Shown in pieces: positions 28,935 to 64,000 of a stretch of 64,000 bases of DNA. The translations under genes were made by a program, and so were the position numbers. Source of the DNA: Phlegmacium glaucopus (Eukaryota; Basidiomycota; Agaricomycetes; Agaricales; Cortinariaceae); NCBI GenBank assembly GCA_015039465.1, contig MU130625.1, positions 214,655-278,654 on the forward strand. Direction: 5' to 3'. The number at the start of each line of letters is the position of its first letter. Positions within the stretch are counted from its first letter, which is position 1. The notes beneath the pieces are model-generated. The model was not told the DNA's origin and made no database searches. It worked only from the letters and a program-made list of their open reading frames with translations.

Positions 28935-31900
28935 CTATATTTGAGAGAAAACATTGAGCAGGAAAATCTTGGAATAAAATATAAGGGCCACACATACTTC
29001 TAGAAGCAAAATTTCTCCTGTGGAATATCCAAGGCATATTTTAGACAAGTGATAGCTAACAGATGTTGGATCACAGAAAGGTGGTGGAATCCAAATTTTA
29101 TAGTTCATGGTGTGGAATATCATGTCTTCATATATATCAAGCAATGATAACTGTAATGAGGGATATAATTCGCCATGAGCATCATGGTGGATATAAATAC
29201 CATCAGGAATTGACGGTAAACCAGGTAATTGACTGTTACCAGATATAGATGGAACAAACATATGTGCATCCAGCTCTGCCTCACACTCTCCTGTGGCTGT
29301 GTTCCAGATCCTTACAGTCTTCTCATGAGATGCAGTCACAATATGCATACCATCAGGAGAGAAGACAGCAGAGATGACAATGTCTGGATGTCCTTCCAGC
29401 TCTGCCTCACACTCTGCTGTGGCTGTATTCCAGATCTGTGCAGTTCCATCATGAGATGCAGACACAATATGCATACCATCAGAAGAGAAGACAGCAGAGA
29501 AGACAGGTGCTGAATGTCCTTGCAGCTCTGCCTCACACTCTCCTGTGGCTATATTCCAGATCCATGCAGTGTTATCATGAGATCCAGACACAATATGCAT
29601 ACTATCAGGAGAGAAGACAGCACAGAAGACAGAGCTTGAATGTCCTTTCAGCTCTGCCTCACACTCTCCTGTGGCTATATTCCAGATCCTCACAGTCTTA
29701 TCAATGTTACGATGCATACACGCAGCGTATGCACACCATTCAGTAGAGAAGACAGCAGAGAAGACAGGTGCTGAATGTCCTTGCAGCTCTGCCTCACACT
29801 CTCCTGTGGCTATATTCCAGATCCTTGCAGTCTTATCTCTAGATGCAGACACAATATGCATACCATCAGGAGAGAACACAGCAGAGTTGACTCTTTCTGA
29901 ATGTCCTTTTAGCTCTGCCTCACACTCTTCTGTGGCTGTCTTCCAGATCCTTGCAGTGCAGTCTGCAGATGCAGACACAATATGCATACCATCAGGAGAG
30001 AAGACAGCAGATCTGACTGATGCTGAATGTCCTTTCAGCTCTGCCTCACACTCTCCTGTGGCTGTATTCCAGATCCATGCAGTGTTATCTGCAGATGCAG
30101 ACACCACACACATACCATCAGGAGAGAAGACAGCCGAGATGACACTTCCTGAATGTCCTTTCAGCTCTGCCTCACGCTCCCCTGTGGATGTATTCCAGAT
30201 CCGTCAAGTCCAATCCTCAGATGCAGACACAATATGCATACCATCAGGAGAGAAGACAGCAGATGTGACACTGTCTGAATGTCCTTTCAGCTCTGCCTTG
30301 CACTCTCCTGTGGCTGTATTCCAGATCCTTGCAGTGTTATCTCTAGATGCAGACACAATATGCATACCATCAGGAGAGAAGACAGCAGACATGACACTGT
30401 CTGAATGTCCTTCCAACTCTGCCTCACACTCTCCTGTGGCTGTATTCCAGATCCTTGCAGTGTGATCATAAGATGCAGACACAATATGCATACCATCAGG
30501 AGAGAAGACAGCAGAGTTGACACAGTTTGAATGTCCTTTCAGCTCTGCCTCACACTCTCCTGTGGCTGTATTCCAGATCCTTGCAGTGTTATCATTAGAT
30601 GCAGACACAAGATGCATACCATCAGAAGATAAGACAGCAGAGTGGACCCGTTTTGAATGTCCTTTCAACTCTGCCTCACACTCTCCTGTGTCTGGATTCC
30701 AGATCCGTACTGTGTTATCATCAGATGCAGAGACAATATGCATACCATCAGAAGAGAAGACAGCAGAGTTGACACTTCTTGAATGTCCTTCCAGTTCTGC
30801 CTCACCCTCCCCTGTGGATGTATTCCAGATCCGTAAAGTCCAATCCTCAGATGCAGACACAATATGCATACCATCAGGAGAGAAGACAGCAGAGTTGACA
30901 CATCCTGAATGCCTTAGAACTGCTTCATTCTTGCTCCATGCTTTTCTCCTTCCAATGCAGAGCTTCCATGGACACTTCATCCTACTTCCATATGTTTTCC
31001 AAATATCTGATTCTGCTGGCAGCCAAACTAATGCTGAAGGACATCCTTCAAGACTGTTCTTTTTAATAAATTCAAAATTTTCTTTCAGGAACCTTTCAGC
31101 ATCAATCACTGCCATCTTCAATGGGTCTTTGGCCTATTTTCTATTGTAAGTGCAATTCAGCTGCACCAACAGGAACACTTACCTTTGCCCAACTTTTCAG
31201 CTCATGCAATGAATGCATTGCCATTCCCAACTTTCCTAAAATACTCAAACAATCCATCCATTGCAGAAGATGTCTTTGGAAAAAATGATTCACTTCATCA
31301 ATTTCATTGTTATTGTCTGAATATGTGAAATGTGACACCCAGCTGCCACAAGCATATGCAAGGGATTCAGAAATATCTCCACATCTCCTCTCTGCCAAGT
31401 AAGATACCCTTTCTTCCTCTGACCATTCTTTATCCATCAAGGACAGACACTGAAGTGCTAAAGACTTATGTGAAATACATGGGTCCAAGTAGTGCTTTGA
31501 GGACAGATTTTGGTTGCTGATGAAATCATAGAAGGAAGCATGAAATGTTGAGATGGGCATATCAGGGGTTTGGGATGGAATATATATCAAGGAATGGAGA
31601 GGAGAAAGGGCATCCACAGTGTGTTCTATGGGCATTTCCATCAAAGCACTGATGGCAGCTATAGAAAGAGGATTATAGACATATACAACAGCTGTGAGAA
31701 CCATGTCTATATCTGATGCCTCCCAAGTACTTGTTGACTCATAGGCAGCATCCAAAATTCTTTCATAAAGAACATGTAGTGGCTGGATTACACCAGATGT
31801 TATCCCCAATCCAGAATTGACAACACCTGAGAGACGCCTAGGCATCCTAGAGCTACCCTTCTGAGCAATATATTTGCAAACAGTTGCTGCATAAATGAAC

Positions 31901-43194: not shown

Positions 43195-44038
43195 AATACT
43201 GGACTTTTGTACCGTAATAAATCAGTTGATTACTCCCCCTCAATTTCATTCTCAAAGGACTCATATCACGAGTTCTATTTCTACTGCTACAAAAGAAAAT
43301 ACAAGTAAGTTTCTCGGAGTAACGAAGGTCCGTTACCGAGAAGGCTTGTACTATCTAAAACTCTCCCATCCGAGATCCCCTGCTTGAACACCGAAACGGA
43401 CAGTGTCCCTTCCTCTCGCATCAAATATAATACCTATTTCTACGGTAGTACAAACTACTACATCACAGCGCACCGTACCGATTTGGCGGCTACATTATGG
43501 TGACGGTAGTGCCGAAGCCGTACCGTAGAGAGGTTTGCGAACCTCTTGACGGTACGGTACGGTTCATAATATTGATACTAACGACGTTCGGCTAAAATAA
43601 TGCCATTTTAGTGGTAGAAATAAGGGAGCAATTTCGGAGTTGCGAGCCAATAACTATCATTGGTGTAACTGAACCGAAACTCGTCAGATGCAACGGTCGT
43701 CGACCAGCGGTTGGTATTGAGCCCGCAATATTCCTTCTCTTGTCAGTAACGACGTAAAGGCGAGGTTAGTTAGTCATGGTAGGCAAGAGAGCAAGTAGAC
43801 CATCGTGAGACCAGTACCAGCCAGTATGCTTTTGATGCCACATTATTTAGGGGAGTTGAGGCAGAGTCATTGTAGTACTTGCCAATCTAACCTTTGGGTT
43901 TGCTTTGGGTGCTTCAGAACGACCACATTTGAGGGTGGTGTTGAGGTGGCGTCGACTGAATTGGTTTGAATGTGAACCAGCTCATTGTGTTGTGTCGCGG
44001 ACGAGATAACGGTGAAATTTGGACTTGACATCGACATT
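43195..44038. other. duplicate of the 33.5-34.2 kb region
   Basis: Intergenic-type DNA. From 43560 it matches 33570 onwards. The minus frame SATQHNELVHIQT is shared by both copies, but no complete gene is visible. Confidence 0.5.
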
Positions 44039-47258: not shown

Positions 47259-48596
47259 ATGGGTCTCATTAATCCATCTAGACTTGGTCTACGCTCGACA
47301 AGCTCTCGACGTGCAGGCCCGTTAACATCGACCCTGCCACCTATCAACCATCTTGCTACCCACACCACTAAACAGATTAGGCAAAGCCACCAGAATCTGT
47401 ACCATCTATGCTTCCAGCCAGAACCATCTCCTTTTCATGCTTCAAAGCTTCCCATTCCCAGACGGAACTTGAACGTCCCACGGCCCGTACGCAACAATAC
47501 TTCAGTACCTGATTCTGGATATGCATCTGCAGAGAAAGATGGAATCAAAGCTGAATTTTCGGTCGGTTCCGAATCTTCTTTCTATGAAGATAACGAATAT
47601 ACCGAGTTGGATTTACTGCGTGCCGACTCTTTCGAGCGTTCTTTCGCTATCAAATGGCTAAGTGCCTTTATCACCCGTTCAGACAACTGGATTGCAGCCT
47701 GTGGTTCAGAATCCGATTCGGTAGAGAGATCAACTATTCTCGACCAAGCGATAACTTTACTTTCCACCTTCACCAATGGCGACGAAGAGACAGAAGTTGC
47801 TCTGACACGTACTCTCTCTTTTCCACTGACGACGAGCTCTACCTTGAAGAAGAAGAATAAAAACGAAATTCAGGTGGAACTGAATGATGCTCCGCTTTTG
47901 AAAGAGGACCATACCTCTGTCGGGTTACAAAATTGGGGTAGCTCCATTCTACTTGCAGGACGTATTTGCCGTCACCCTTCTCTTTTCTCATTGACTGTGC
48001 CAATCAACACCGATGGCAGACCTCTTCGAATTCTTGAGCTCGGCGCTGGCACAGGAATGCACAGTATCGTCGCTGCCAAGATTCTACAATCCTGTAATTC
48101 AACACTACAAATTATGGGTACAGATTATCATCCAGAGGTGCTCGACAACCTTGCCAAAAATGTCGCAACTAACTTCCCGAAATCTCCTTCTGTTATTACC
48201 ATCAGGTGTCTGGACTGGGAAGTCCCACGTTATAGCGAGTCTTTGGATCGACCGTTCGATGTCATTCTAGCTGCCGATGTTATATACTACCCCGAACATG
48301 CTAGATGGATCAAACAGTGCGTTGAGAAGCTTCTTAGTCGGCCTTCTTCCAGCTCCAACTGTAGTGGCGGTGATGTCTTCTGGCTTATTATTCCTGTAAG
48401 ATCGACGGGAAGACACGAAGGGTTGGACAGGACCGTTGATACCCTTTTCCCTGCTTATCCCCTCGAACATGTGGAAGCCCATATAGATTCTAAATCCCAG
48501 TTGGCTATTTTAGAGAAGGAAGAAATTGGAAGACAGGGAAGTGTTGGTTGGGCTGATGGTGGTTACAAGTTGTTTGAAATCAGCTGGATCAATTAA
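47259..48596 (+). CDS. Methyltransf_16 (EFM2/FAM86-like) methyltransferase, copy C
   Basis: An intact intronless frame of 445 residues. Motif I is RILELGAGTGMHSI, then TDYHPEVLDNLAKN and DVILAADVIYYPEH. Compared with copy A it lacks a few residues in the Asn-rich N-terminal stretch and carries scattered substitutions (for example HH to YY-type changes near the active site). It is probably functional. Its partner, lipase C, lies tail-to-tail 207 bp downstream, as in the other two cassettes. Confidence 0.88.
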   Translation: MGLINPSRLGLRSTSSRRAGPLTSTLPPINHLATHTTKQIRQSHQNLYHLCFQPEPSPFHASKLPIPRRNLNVPRPVRNNTSVPDSGYASAEKDGIKAEFSVGSESSFYEDNEYTELDLLRADSFERSFAIKWLSAFITRSDNWIAACGSESDSVERSTILDQAITLLSTFTNGDEETEVALTRTLSFPLTTSSTLKKKNKNEIQVELNDAPLLKEDHTSVGLQNWGSSILLAGRICRHPSLFSLTVPINTDGRPLRILELGAGTGMHSIVAAKILQSCNSTLQIMGTDYHPEVLDNLAKNVATNFPKSPSVITIRCLDWEVPRYSESLDRPFDVILAADVIYYPEHARWIKQCVEKLLSRPSSSSNCSGGDVFWLIIPVRSTGRHEGLDRTVDTLFPAYPLEHVEAHIDSKSQLAILEKEEIGRQGSVGWADGGYKLFEISWIN

Positions 48597-52310: not shown

Positions 52311-52732
52311 AGAAAAGAACAAAAAGTGAAAATAACAGGCTCTGGTCAACACTCCTGTCCATCCACCCATCAGTCACTACATTTTTTAGTAAATACATGT
52401 TCAAAAAGTGAAATTAAAACACAGAAATATAACATTATAGTTGTTTCAGAAGAACTACTTAAAAGAACCCAAAAAAGCGAAATTTGAAGTCATGTCACGG
52501 TGATGTCACGACTTGTGACTTTCATGACCATGTGCTACCTTTGTCACGTATATACAGAGAGGAAGTGTGTGAACGGCTTAGTCAAACTTACGTAAGCTTA
52601 CGTAGCGTCCTCTGTTAATATATAAAGATCACAACTGCAACCAGACTGCAAAAGACTGCACAAGACTGATTACTGTCAGTCTAACACAGGTCCTAAAGGG
52701 GCATTTATATGAAGCAGTTAGAACCAGCTGCC

Positions 52733-53115
52733 CAAGGGGGCACCGGGATCAGAAAAAAATACCCAGGGTCAATTTTTTGTTAAGGACTTTCTGGCTGGAC
52801 TAACTAACTAACATAAGCAAGTTATGTCTATATATGGTAATTTTACATAATTATTTAAATATTACAATTATTTCTAAATTTAGATGTATATGATGGCACA
52901 TCAATTCAGCCATCACATTTCACAAAACCATTCCAACACATCCATACCACTGACAACATGATAGGAATTATATATTATAGTTATTTACAGTATATTAGGG
53001 CTCATATTTATTAAAATAATGATCAAATTCAGATGAAAAATCAGGGGTCCAAATTTATTTTTTCAGGCCTGCAGCTGGACCCCTGGTCCAGAATTCAGAT
53101 GCTGGTGCCCCCTTG
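52733..53115. mobile_element. hAT-type MITE, 383 bp
   Basis: The ends are caagggggcacc and ggtgcccccttg. The 8-bp sequence cagctgcc flanks both sides (52725-52732 and 53116-53123), the duplication length of hAT elements. The related locus at about 28129 lacks the insert. No coding capacity. A backward copy of this element and its flanks lies in 57527-58430. Confidence 0.85.
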
Positions 53116-53620
53116 CAGCTGCCCCAACAAAACTCAAATGGCAGCATCATCAGGGTTCAGGAACCCATTCAAGTTGACCTGCCCAAAGTGTGTGAAAATT
53201 GTCAGCATCTAAGGTCTTTAGTAGTAGTAGTAGTATAACTTCCATTAAAGTGGCAGAACAATAATAACATGATGCACTAATATGTGTCTGCCTTAAATGT
53301 TTGTCAGACAGTGGGTTTTTCCCCCTGGTACAAAAGAAAGCAGAAACAGAGAATGAAAGTGGAAATAATAAAGAATAGCATACAATAATACACATCCACC
53401 ATTGGACATGTCAAATGGCAAATTATTTTCACAAAATCAAAAAAAAAACCAAATATTAGTGAAAAAACAGCATATATTAATATATAATATATGCACCTGA
53501 CAATGTGGTCCAGGACCAGTTATAACTGGTCTTTGAATGGTCCTATATATTCTTCCAACTTGAAAGACAAAGGATCAGACTGCTTTTAAAATGGGCAGGA
53601 CAAAACATTCTCCTACAAAG

Positions 53621-54752: not shown

Positions 54753-55900
54753 TCATACCCATAAGCTTAAGAAGTTAACATTGAAACTATATTTAAAAGA
54801 AAACATTGAGCAAGGAAAATTGTAAAATAGATTGTAAGGGGTCATACATACTTCTAGAAGCAAAATTTCCCCTGTTCCATATCCCAGGCATATTTTAGAC
54901 AAGTGATAGCTGACAGATGTTGGATTACAGAAAGGTGATGGAATCCAAAGTTTATAGTTCATGGTGGTGTGGAATACCATGCCTTGATGTATATCAAGGA
55001 ATGATAACTGTAATGAGGGATAAAGCTGGCCATAAGCATCATGGTGGATATAAATACCATCAGGTATTGATGATAAACTGGGTAATTGACTGTTATCATA
55101 TATGGATGGAACAGATATATGTCCTTTCAGCTGTGCCTCACACTCCCCTGTGGCTGCATTCCAGATGTGTGCAATTCTATTATAAGATGCAGACACAATA
55201 TGCATACCATCAGGAGAGAAGACAGCAGAGTAGACAAAATATGAGTGTCCTTTCAGCTCTGCCTCACACTCTCCTGTGGCTGTATTCCAGATCCTTGCAG
55301 TCTTATCAAAAGATGCAGACACAATATGCATACCATCAGAAGAGAAGACAGCAGAGTAGACAGAGTTTGAATGTCCTTTTAGCTCTGCCTCACACTCTCC
55401 TGTGGCTGTATTCCAGATCCTTGCAGTGTTATCATCAGATGCAGAGACAATATGCATACCATCAGGAGAGAAGACAGCAGAGTTGACCCTATATGAATGT
55501 CCTTTCAACTCTGCCTCACACTCTCCTGTGGCTCTATTCCAGATCCTTGCAGTGTGATCATAAGATGCAGACACAATATGCATACCATCAGGAGAGAAGA
55601 CAGCAGAGTTGACACTTTTTGAATGTCCTTTCAGCTCTGCCTCACACTCTCCTGTGGCTGTATTCCAGATCCTTGCAGTGTCATCATCAGATGCAGACAC
55701 AATATACATACCATCAGGAGAGAAGACAGCAGAGTTGACCTGATATGAATGTCCTTTCAGCTCTGCCTCACACTGTCCTGCGGCTGTATTCCAGATCCTT
55801 GCAGTGTTATCATCAGATGCAGATACAATATGCATACCATCAGGAGAGAAGACAGCAGAGTTGACAAAATTTGAATGTCCTTTCAGCTCTGCCTCACACT
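54753..55900 (-). pseudogene. 5'-truncated WD40 gene (NLR paralogue)
   Basis: Six full 42-residue WD40 units and a partial one are followed by the same C-terminal half-blade as the NLR at 28935 (SIPDGIYIHHDAYG...SYHLSKICLGYGTGEILLLE). The open frame is clean, but the coding match stops dead at 55900 inside the GECEAEL part of a unit. No start, NACHT domain or linker is attached. Confidence 0.85.
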
Positions 55901-58430
55901 ACACGGCCCAGTCGATATTACACGGCCTACTCTGTAGTAGACGGCCCATCTGTTACACGGCCAAGTCTGACGGCCAAGTATGACAGGGCCAGCTCTGTAA
56001 GAGCGCTCCATGGCCGTCACGACTAATAAGGAAAGTTACGGCCCGACAGAACTCACGAATTATAGTCAGACGTAGTGACCGGTATCGGTCCAGTACTCAT
56101 AATGGTAGACTATAGACATGAAGGTATAAATGACATGTAAGGGTCGAATATGGTCGTCATCATGGTGGTCAGACCTGACGGGCAAATAGTCGGGACCAGT
56201 ATCGGCCAAGTATATACATTACGGCCGAGTAGGTATCTCAACGGCCGAGTAGGTGTCTCACGGGCCGGACAACTATATGGCCGTAACGGTACAGTACGGG
56301 ACGTGAGGACTAGTACGTCACGGCCAAGTATGGAAAACTGTGGATGACGGAGAGAGAGATAGGGTCGTCATGTACAGGGACAAGTAGGGTCATGGTCGAC
56401 CAACTAGACTCGTAGTGGGCCAGTATCTACCGGTTGATAGTGGTCATGTTGTTTGAGGACGGCCGAGTATGTGGGATGGTTTTGTCTAGCCAACTGTCGT
56501 GGGCCGGTACGACTATCTGGACGGACCGTAACAGATCACGGCATCCATAAGACACTTAGGCATAGAAAGCTGTGTCACACATCTAGGTTTATATCTTATG
56601 GCATAAGGGTCTAAGTGCCCCGGGGTACTTAGGCATAGAAAGTTGTGTCACACAGGCAAGGCCCTTAGCATAGTAAGTTATGTGACATCACAGGGATGGA
56701 CGGACTACCATACGTATAACACAGACGTAGAATACTAGTGTGACGTTCCTAGACCTTATGTCGGTGTCCTCTCACACTCCGTCTCGAGTTTCCTGTAAGT
56801 TTAACCCAGTTGAGACGACAGAAGAGAGGACTACCATACGTATAACACAGACGTAGACTACTAGTGTGACGTTCCTAGACCTTATGTCGGTGTCCTCTCA
56901 CACTCCGTCTCGACTTTCCTGTAAGTTTAACACAGTTGAGACGACAGAAGAGAGGACTACCATACGTATAACACAGACGTAGAATACTATTTTGACGTTC
57001 CTAGACCTTATGTCGGTGTCCTCTCACCAAAAAAAAAAAAAAAAAAAAAAAAATCAATGCATTTGGTCAAAGACTTCACAAGGTAACCGACCTTCAACGT
57101 TTTTACCGTAAAACCGTCCATAGACCCATCTTTAACGAGTAAACATTCCAGGACTCACACGTTATTTTATTTTATTGACGACTCTTTATAAATTTTATGT
57201 ATCATCTCTTAAAATGTAGTAGTTTTGTACAACGTCTTTACTTATTAACTTCATAATATAACGAATTTTCAAAGTCAGGTGGTCTATTTCTTTCGTTTCG
57301 GTGGGGGTTTTGTCAATTGGTGTATTAATGGTAAAAATAGTATTTTTAAGTAAGTGATATATAAGGATACTACGATATTATGTAAATAGTATGTTTTTTT
57401 TAGTAGGTCCTACTACGTCTTGAGTCACTCGTTCGATACAAAGTTCACAAAGTGTGAAACAGTGTGTAAACCGTTACACTGCACTGTATTGCGACGGTTT
57501 AGACATTATCTGTAACGGGTGGTGGTGAATCTACGACTGTTAAAAGTGTGTGAAACCCGTCCAGTTGAACTTACCCAAGGACTTGGGACTACTACGACGG
57601 TAAACTCAAAACAACCCCGTCGACGTTCCCCCGTGGCCGTAGACTTAAGACCTGGTCCCCAGGTCGACGTCCGGACTTTTTTATTTAAACCTGGGGACTA
57701 AAAAGTAGACTTAAACTAGTAATAAAATTATTTATACTCGAGATTGTATGACATTTATTGATATTATGTATTAAGGATGATACAACAGTCACCATACCTA
57801 CACAACCTTACCAAAACGCTTTACACTACCGACTTGACTACACGGTAGTATATGTAGATTTAAATCTTTATTAACATTATAAATTTATTAATACATTTTA
57901 ATGGTATATATCTGTATTGAACGAATACAATCAATCAATCAGGTCGGTCTTTCAGGAATTGTTTTTTAACTGGGACCCATAAAAAAAGACTAGGGCCACG
58001 GGGGAACCCGTCGACCAAGATTGACGAAGTATATTTACGGGGAAATCCTGGACACAATCTGACTGTCATTAGTCAGAACACGTCAGAAAACGTCAGACCA
58101 ACGTCAACACTAGAAATATATAATTGTCTCCTGCGATGCATTCGAATGCATTTAAACTGATTCGGTAAGTGTGTGAAAGGAGAGACATATATGCACTGTT
58201 TCCATCGTGTACCAGTACTTTCAGTGTTCAGCACTGTAGTGGCACTGTACTGAAGTTTAAAGCGAAAAAACCCAAGAAAATTCATCAAGAAGACTTTGTT
58301 GATATTACAATATAAAGACACAAAATTAAAGTGAAAAACTTGTACATAAATGATTTTTTACATCACTGACTACCCACCTACCTGTCCTCACAACTGGTCT
58401 CGGACAATAAAAGTGAAAAACAAGAAAAGA
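55901..58430. other. 2.5-kb block that is the backward (uncomplemented) image of local sequence
   Basis: Read right to left without complementing, this block matches neighbouring DNA. Positions 57527-58430 are the letter-by-letter reversal of 52311-53213, including the hAT element and both copies of its target duplication. For example aagtgaaaaacaagaaaaga at 58411-58430 mirrors agaaaagaacaaaaagtgaa at 52311-52330. Positions 56704-57026 are reversed WD40 repeats: ccatacgtataacacagacg occurs at 56708, 56834 and 56960, exactly 126 bp apart, and mirrors gcagacacaatatgcatacc at 55567. Positions 57054-57500 mirror the satellite seen at 58431-59087. Reverse complementation gives no match. No frame encodes WD40 protein here. 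Confidence 0.9.
57029..57053. repeat. A25 homopolymer inside the mirrored block
   Basis: A run of 25 A joins reversed WD40 repeats to reversed satellite sequence. It may mark a retroposed end or a gap filled during assembly. Confidence 0.8.
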
Positions 58431-59087
58431 TGTCTTGGTGATGTGAAATGTTCTAATATATATTTTAAATATTTCTCAGCAATTATATTATTTTATTTCA
58501 CACCCAGACCCTTATAAATGATCAGTTTCCACCCAAATTCCTGCTAAAATGCAGTGTTGGCAACTTCTAGCCTATAGAACACATCTAAAACTGGTTTCTG
58601 TAGCTCATATTACAAATAGTATAATGTGCATTATTAACATCTCTCAGGAGTTAGAATTTTTTATTTCACACTCAAGCCCTTAAAAAATAAGTGAACTACT
58701 GCCTGTTCCAATCCAAATTTGAAACTTCCAGCCTATAGAACTGTTCATAAGCTGGTCTTTGTAGCTCTTCCTGTGACCAAAGATTATCTATGGTGTATCA
58801 AAAATATTTCTCAAGAATTTTATTATTTTATTTCACACTTATAATCCTACAATTAAGCAAACCCCACCCACATCCCTGCTAAATTGCAATTTTTGAGACA
58901 TCCAGCCTATAAAACTCTTCAGAAACTGGGTTCTGCAACCTATCATAGTGACAAAAAATGCTCTACCATATATTCTCAGTATTTCTCAGGAGTTATATTT
59001 TTTAATTCTGCTCCCAACCCCCCACAACTAAGTGATCTTCAGCCAATTTCATCCAATGTGTGATGTTTGAGACTTCCAACCTATAGA
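58431..59087. repeat. four degenerate tandem copies, period about 175 bp
   Basis: Each copy carries tatttctcaggagtta-like, ttttatttcacac-like and cagcctatagaac-like blocks in the same order. The last copy is cut by the LTR at 59088. A further copy lies backwards in 57054-57500. Confidence 0.7.
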
Positions 59088-62862: not shown

Positions 62863-63480
62863 ATGCCTTCCAAGTCTGCTCAACCCTCCAAGGCCAAGAT
62901 GGGTGCCGCTGAACAACAAAAATATAACACTGATGTGGTTGGCTGGGCAAAGAAGCTGTGGGGAGCAATCAAGGATGGGAGTTATGCCCCAGACCACCAA
63001 GACTTTTTTGATGAGTTCAACAGGCTTTGTGATGTGTCTGAAGGCAGCCAGAGCACAAAAACCACCATGCTGGACCATGTCGCCCCAATTTACAATCATG
63101 TCGCATCGCAGGGCTATCAGCCTGATATCTATTACCAGCCTCCCAAAGACGCTGTGTCCAACTTCTGCACCAACAAACCTGTGACCAAATGGATTGGCCC
63201 AGCCGATCAGTGGAGTCGGTCACCTTCCCCTACCTTGAATTCCCCGAAGCCGATGCCAACACCCACCAACAAAGTCAGTAAAAAAACCATGCTGAGCCTG
63301 AAGCCACAACAACTCATGGCCTGCATTGTCGCAAGCAATGCAGGACCATCAAAAAAGGGCAAGTCAAAGGCTGTACTTTACAGTCCCCCACATACTCCAC
63401 CGGACTCCACTGGACTCCACCAGACTCCGCTGGACTCCGCTGGACTCCACCAAACTCAAGTCCTGGACTGTTCAGTGTGA
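62863..63480 (+). CDS. uncharacterised protein, 205 residues
   Basis: An uninterrupted frame starting MPSKSAQPSKAKMGAAEQQ. The first 130 residues look like a folded helical protein (VVGWAKKLWGAIKDG, HQDFFDEFNRLCDVSEG, YYQPPKDAVSNFCTNK). Then comes a Ser/Pro/Lys-rich tail. The last 35 codons run into a transposon-like terminus at 63377 (HTPPDSTGLHQTPLDSAGLH), so the original C-terminus may have been replaced by element sequence. Family not recognised. It may belong to the surrounding element. Confidence 0.5.
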   Translation: MPSKSAQPSKAKMGAAEQQKYNTDVVGWAKKLWGAIKDGSYAPDHQDFFDEFNRLCDVSEGSQSTKTTMLDHVAPIYNHVASQGYQPDIYYQPPKDAVSNFCTNKPVTKWIGPADQWSRSPSPTLNSPKPMPTPTNKVSKKTMLSLKPQQLMACIVASNAGPSKKGKSKAVLYSPPHTPPDSTGLHQTPLDSAGLHQTQVLDCSV

Positions 63481-63600
63481 CACCTGTCACATACTGGAGT
63501 CCGGTGGAGTCTGATGGACTATGTGGTGTCTGATGGAGTCCGGTGGAGTCCGCTGGACTATGTGGTGTCTGATGGAGTCCAGTGGAGTCCGACCGTCTTC
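63377..63600. mobile_element. left-type end of a second related element
   Basis: tttacagtcccccacatact repeats the terminus of the element at 61166. It is followed by ccaccggactccactggact-type subterminal repeats, first in one orientation and then inverted (gtccggtggagtctgatgga). The other end is not in the window. Confidence 0.45.
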
Positions 63601-63719
63601 TTGAACTTCTACTACTACGTCTACTATAACCACCACTACCACCACTACAAATTAATGTGAAACATTTTTGAACAAACAGATCAACAAGGATATACTCATA
63701 TATTATTACATTTTCCGGT

Positions 63720-64000
63720 GGTCTGGGGTCTGAGTTGTCCTGAGGTGGTTTCAGGTGGTCTGAGGTCGCCTGAGGTGGTCTGAGGTAGTCTGTGGTGTAT
63801 CAGGTGGTCTGAGGTCGCCTGAGGTGGCCTGAGGTGGTCTGTGGTGTATCAGGTGGTCTGAGGTGGCCTGAGGTGGTCTGATCTGAGGTGGTCTGAGGTG
63901 GCCTGAGGTGGCCTGAGGTAGTCTGTGGTGTATCAGGTGGTCTGAGGTGGCCTGAGGTGACCTGAGGTAGTCTGTGGTGTATCAGGTGGTCTGAGGTCGT
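63720..64000. repeat. minisatellite of ggtggtctga-type units, runs off the right edge
   Basis: Units of 10-11 bp (ggtggtctga, ggtggcctga, ggtcgcctga) are grouped into longer blocks separated by gtctgtggtgtatca, which recurs several times. No coding frame. Confidence 0.85.

What the first reader, a model, noticed from the sequence alone, without database searches (positions are those of the whole stretch)
55901..58430. A 2.5-kb block is the backward, uncomplemented image of nearby DNA
About 900 bp (57527-58430) are the string reversal of 52311-53213, and three 126-bp WD40 units (56704-57026) are the string reversal of coding repeats found at 54.7-55.9 kb. No known process (inversion, palindrome formation, replication slippage, retrotransposition) can place a sequence in parallel polarity without complementing it. 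Either an assembly or formatting step reversed a contig without complementing it, or this is an unprecedented structure. It is invisible to ordinary homology searches, because neither strand matches.
Basis: seen in the sequence. Interest (0 to 1): 0.95.

Follow-up and report, generated by a model that had tools for sequence, protein, structure and literature searches.

The report
Gap fill pasted in backwards
A stretch of a mushroom genome really does read backwards without being complemented, but it is a software error in the assembly (two gap-filling pieces written in reverse around a run of 25 A's), found at other places of the same assembly too, and not a new kind of DNA.

Summary
In detail: reversed as a string, window 55901-58430 aligns to 52311-53213 (98.8%, 904 bp; 1578 bits, best of 200 shuffles 37 bits) and to forward WD40 repeats. 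It is an assembly artefact. The block is two pieces, 55901-57028 and 57054-58430, each reversed in place around exactly 25 A's. Turned back piece by piece, the left one continues the left flank's WD40 array (6.2 to 8.8 copies) and the right one the right flank's tandem repeat; turning the whole block does neither. Runs of exactly 25 A occur 157 times on contig plus strands and once on minus; of exactly 24, 0 and 1. Biology cannot know contig orientation. In-place reversal also rejoins broken repeats at C154, C224 (two places) and C41, and reversed strings encode WD40, ankyrin, TPR and reverse-transcriptase domains. The genome is Phlegmacium (Cortinarius) glaucopus, named in a JGI study that patched hybrid assemblies with PBJelly, whose gaps can be exactly 25 bases. 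PBJelly as the source is inferred; the A's instead of N's are unexplained.

The parts
55901..57028 (.). Left piece, rev(X): string-reversed rightward extension of the left flank (1128 bp). X read the right way = 2.6 WD40 units, then an 801-bp dispersed element
   Evidence: Reversed alignment; the turned-around 801-bp part matches C164, C228 and C190 over 801 bp and C184 over 745 bp at 98-99%; restored WD40 array continuous. The boundary at 55900 is uncertain by a few bases
57029..57053 (+). 25-base placeholder written as A
   Evidence: Exactly 25 A; longest other homopolymer listed in the window is 13; own genome has 157 plus / 1 minus such runs
57054..58430 (.). Right piece, rev(Y): string-reversed leftward extension of the right flank (1377 bp). 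Y read the right way = copy of 52311-53213, then a dispersed repeat (Y 905-1377) with 34 matches covering most of it
56702..57027 (.). String-reversed WD40 units (2.6 x 126 bp) inside rev(X)
   Evidence: translation of the reversed string gives PF00400 at 2e-33; three as-given stretches give no WD40
55119..55900 (-). Left flank: normal WD40 array, 6.2 x 126 bp, coding on the minus strand
58431..59028 (+). Right flank: diverged tandem repeat (spacing 167-175 bp) that rev(Y), turned back, continues
52311..53213 (+). Normal-orientation copy of the sequence found reversed at 57527-58430; contains a dispersed element (about positions 420-805)

Best explanation
An assembly gap lay between a WD40 array (ending near 55900) and a tandem repeat (starting near 58431). 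A gap filler extended the left flank rightwards by X (1128 bp) and the right flank leftwards by Y (1377 bp), did not join them, put a 25-base placeholder between them, and wrote both extension strings reversed without complementing them. The sequence therefore reads left flank - rev(X) - A25 - rev(Y) - right flank. Shown: the reversal, the two pieces, the in-phase restoration of both flanks, the plus-strand-only 25-A joints, and the same pattern at several other places, one of them a contig end. Inferred: that the tool was PBJelly (about 60%), and that the reversal happens when an extension from the other strand is reversed but not complemented. Not explained: why the placeholder is A and not N.
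For: (1) Reversal beyond chance. (2) Plus / minus runs of exactly 23 A: 1/1; 24 A: 0/1; 25 A: 157/1; 26 A: 72/1. (3) Restoration by in-place reversal: window WD40 array 6.2 to 8.8 copies and a 175-bp repeat newly found across the right joint, neither of which appears if the whole block is turned; joint alignment scores 190 to 362 (left) and 59 to 104 (right); C154 end 462 to 764 bp, 98.7%, no gap; L035 (5.3 + 7.6) and L038 (8.4 + 4.5), both on C224, to 12.9 copies; L067 on C41, 4.6 + 3.8 to 8.3 copies with 0% indels at break 1030, the best of nine breaks tried. (4) L056: the end of the reversed left piece equals the first 57 bases after the A25, 57 of 57. (5) Reversed strings encode WD40, ankyrin, TPR and RVT_2 domains; six as-given stretches have no hit above a Pfam cut-off. 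In 15 of 17 reversed segments the longest open stretch is longer reversed than as given, with one tie and one shorter. (6) Organism and method context.
Against: No raw reads were seen. The placeholder is A, whereas other gaps in the same assembly are N. By the 6-mer model 19 of 30 A25 joints show no strong reversed segment beside the A25, so the reversal is not universal or the model is weak on short flanks. L039 (C44) has a reversed segment with no A25 or N inside its locus. 21 of 25 strong segments lie within 150 bp of an A25, N run or contig end, against a mean of 16.8 (maximum 22) for random placement in the same short loci, so that test is weak. L033 gains nothing from in-place reversal, and a wider scan of L067 preferred another break (1076), which merges the piece with the array on the right. 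One reversed stretch (L056) has no Pfam hit. The passages I saw do not say that this genome was one of the hybrids.
Confidence: 0.97

Rival explanations
1. A real chromosomal structure: DNA copied in parallel polarity without complementing by an unknown process.
For: The reversed-only match is real.
Against: 25-A runs lie on the contig plus strand 157 to 1 although contig orientation is arbitrary; reversing the pieces in place restores normal repeats and the reversed strings encode normal domains.
Confidence: 0.002
3. A formatting step reversed one contiguous contig 55901-58430.
For: The whole block is reversed.
Against: Reversing the whole block leaves the left array at 6.2 copies and shows no repeat across the right joint; reversing each piece restores both. 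At 9 of 11 other joints with a strong reversed segment only one side is reversed.
Confidence: 0.01

Closest known systems
PBJelly flank-extension / 'overfilled' gap (PMC3504050, passages seen; PMC6733440, passages seen)
   Same: Two flank extensions that are not joined, inserted into a scaffold gap; short gaps inflated to exactly 25 bases
   Different: Here the extensions are string-reversed and the 25 bases are A, not N; the passages I saw describe neither, and two phrase searches found no paper
Ordinary inverted or misjoined assembly segments (general knowledge)
   Same: Wrong orientation of a piece inside a scaffold
   Different: Ordinary inversions are reverse complements and still match on the other strand; these match the forward copies on neither strand

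Membership tests
PBJelly double flank-extension (overfilled) gap | Extensions from both flanks, not joined to each other | tested here: met
   X continues the left flank, Y continues the right flank
PBJelly double flank-extension (overfilled) gap | 25-base gap between them | tested here: met
   Exactly 25 bases at 57029-57053 and at 157 plus-strand places
PBJelly double flank-extension (overfilled) gap | Gap letters are N | tested here: not met
   Letters are A; so it is described as working like such a gap, not filed as one
PBJelly double flank-extension (overfilled) gap | This assembly was made with PBJelly | tested here: inconclusive
   PMC7550596 says hybrid assemblies were ALLPATHS-LG plus PBJelly and names C. 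glaucopus; I did not see that C. glaucopus is a hybrid
Real chromosomal inversion or palindrome | Reverse-complement match to the source | tested here: not met
   As given, no match above 31.9 bits on either strand of the rest of the window

The most novel reading that the evidence does not exclude
A systematic error class that I did not find described: string-reversed flank extensions next to 25-A placeholders, at an estimated 300 placeholder joints in this genome of which a part carries reversed pieces. It may also sit unnoticed in other hybrid assemblies made with the same pipeline, hiding repeats and WD40, TPR and ankyrin genes from homology searches.
Probability: 0.35. Interest if true: 0.4.

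Novelty: not a real feature. Interest (0 to 1): 0.17.

Why it matters
It removes a claim of impossible DNA and explains it to within a few bases at both joints. It also suggests a cheap test, a plus-strand-only excess of exactly 25-A runs plus a k-mer orientation scan, for finding string-reversed fills in other public assemblies. Such fills do not match their normal copies in ordinary searches and interrupt repeat-rich genes. For one as-given frame from such a piece I found no public protein relative, so contamination of protein databases is not shown.

Tried and rejected
Chance or low complexity: rejected. One reversed contig: rejected. Window 43265-43815, the next 6-mer outlier: as given it matches many repeat copies; not pursued as a reversed fill, orientation not settled. 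L033: in-place reversal gave no longer array (1485 to 1487). L067: the wide scan (breaks 900-1149) scored highest at 1076, merging the piece with the array on the right; one search tried nine breaks between 1020 and 1040 and the left array peaked at 1030; both are told. Count of joints with reversed-only matches (17 of 30; 15 of 30 outside their own locus): poor discrimination, since 17 of 30 also match as given and 30 of 30 control loci, chosen for kinship to the block, match reversed pieces. Segment placement test: weak. One search labelled the window block reversed at the start, so its call of 55895-58111 is partly circular, trained without the block, is the clean test. Protein from reversed DNA (L042 as given): none of 7992 scored candidates at E <= 0.001.

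Literature. Searches: (two found no paper; 27, 30, 36, 40, 52 seen as listings with starts of abstracts). Passages only, no whole text: PMC3504050, PMC7550596, PMC6733440, PMC9635638, PMC4580222, PMC8848313; none of the passages shown mentions string-reversed fills.

Full report
CHECK. Reversed as a string, the block 55901-58430 aligns to 52311-53213 over 904 columns at 98.8% and to forward WD40 units elsewhere in the window. As given, its best match to the rest of the window is 31.9 bits; reversed it is 1578 bits; the best of 200 dinucleotide shuffles is 37.4 bits. A 5-mer orientation score trained on the window without the block gives -145 and -91 per kb for the two pieces, while 60 cross-validated 1-kb windows have a median of +57 and a minimum of -26. 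The stretch from 57901 on scores near zero there. A 6-mer segmentation that was started with the block labelled reversed calls 55895-58111; it is partly circular for the window.

ANATOMY. The block contains one run of exactly 25 A's, 57029-57053; the next longest homopolymer listed in the window is 13. It separates rev(X), 1128 bp, from rev(Y), 1377 bp. X read the right way starts with 2.6 WD40 units and runs into an 801-bp element; turned around, that element matches C164, C228 and C190 over 801 bp and C184 over 745 bp at 98-99%. Y starts with the copy of 52311-53213; its last part (905-1377) has 34 matches covering most of it, and the 11 such loci that were cut (L071-L081) show no strong reversed segment. 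So nearly all of the block is ordinary genome repeat once turned around.

BOTH FLANKS RECONNECT. If X and Y are each reversed in place, Tandem Repeats Finder joins the left flank's WD40 array and X into one array of 8.8 copies instead of 6.2, and finds a 175-bp repeat across the Y/right-flank joint that is absent as given. Reversing the whole block as one unit does neither. At the left joint the restored sequence aligns to the interior of the array with score 362 against 190 as given, with a 5-base insertion at the joint; at the right joint 104 against 59, with gaps of 3 and 4 bases. That is what two separate flank extensions look like.

RECURRENCE. The window lies in G000 contig C225 (60.5 Mb, 259 contigs). 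The block as given matches other places of the same assembly. Runs on contig plus / minus strands: exactly 23 A, 1/1; 24 A, 0/1; 25 A, 157/1; 26 A, 72/1. The 26-to-25 ratio of 0.46 is near the 0.56 expected if a 25-base placeholder sometimes meets a neighbouring A, and the counts suggest about 300 joints (my estimate). Because contig orientation is arbitrary, a plus-only run is written by software. At the end of contig C154 an element breaks off after 462 bp as given but runs on for 764 bp at 98.7% without a gap when the last 303 bases are reversed in place. Two C224 loci (L035, L038) behave in the same way. So does L067 on C41: among nine breaks between 1020 and 1040 the left array peaks at 1030 (8.3 copies, 0% indels), although a wider scan scored a different break higher (1076), which merges the piece with the array on the right. 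L033 gave no gain. At L056 the end of the reversed left piece is identical over 57 of 57 bases to the start of the sequence after the A25, an overlap that reversal would have hidden from the gap filler.

HOW COMMON. Of the 30 A25 joints whose loci were cut (the first 30 listed, of 158 runs), 11 have a strong reversed segment next to the A25 by the 6-mer model (7 left only, 2 right only, 2 both) and 19 have none. The model is noisy on 1.5-kb flanks, so this is a rough count. Of 26 loci without A25, N run or contig end, one (L039, fetched because it matches the block as given) has a strong reversed segment. Of 25 strong segments in all, 21 lie within 150 bp of an A25, N run or contig end, against a mean of 16.8 and a maximum of 22 in 2000 random placements within the same loci: suggestive only. 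A count of reversed-only matches at the joints (17 of 30) turned out not to discriminate.

PROTEINS. From 17 reversed segments I took five reversed stretches, most with the look of known domains, besides the window's: WD40 (window 2e-33; L026 5.5e-60), ankyrin (L042, 1.2e-45), TPR (L067, 9.1e-58), RVT_2 (L070, 2.3e-45), and L056 with no hit. Six as-given stretches (three from the window block, one each from L042, L067, L035) have no hit above a Pfam cut-off.

SOURCE. A protein named BYT27DRAFT_7342761 of Phlegmacium glaucopus lies on a contig of 435,958 bases, the length of C225, so the genome is very probably Phlegmacium (Cortinarius) glaucopus. The JGI paper that names this species says hybrid genomes were assembled with ALLPATHS-LG and patched with PBJelly (passages only). 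PBJelly extends gap flanks and calls unjoined excess 'overfilled'; it is said to inflate short gaps to exactly 25 bases. That fits, but I did not see that this genome was one of the hybrids, and the A's in place of N's are unexplained; a 2-bit encoding that turns N into A is my guess.

VERDICT. Real in the letters, not real in the organism. The mechanism is a gap filler, or a step just after it, that wrote flank extensions reversed without complementing them.

Noticed in passing
window 29262-30921: A second, normally oriented WD40 126-bp array, 85-94% identical to the reversed units turned around.
   Followed up: no
L056 515-571 and 1527-1583: The end of the reversed left extension is identical (57 of 57) to the first bases after the 25-A placeholder, so the overlap that could have closed the gap is hidden by the reversal.
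   Followed up: yes
L067 1450-3027: The 25-A run is read in frame as a run of lysines inside an open TPR frame, so the artefact could enter predicted proteins.
   Followed up: no
L012 1-659, L025 898-1957, L026 99-2468: Reversed-looking segments that abut runs of N and not an A25, perhaps extensions into gaps that stayed open.
   Followed up: partly
G000 C10:707-1483, C196:3363-4139, C147:899-1642, C138:650-1357, C154 end: The 801-bp element of X has several copies close to contig ends, perhaps a subtelomeric or gap-prone repeat.
   Followed up: no
window 43265-43815: Weak reversed-like 6-mer score (-33.5) in a dispersed repeat with many copies; orientation not settled.
   Followed up: partly
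window 47259-48596: Lysine-methyltransferase-like gene (PF10294; some relatives are named EFM2 or EEF2KMT) with at least one other relative on the same contig.
   Followed up: no
window 63388-63997: Repetitive sequence that matches its own reversal and complement; no link to the block.
   Followed up: no
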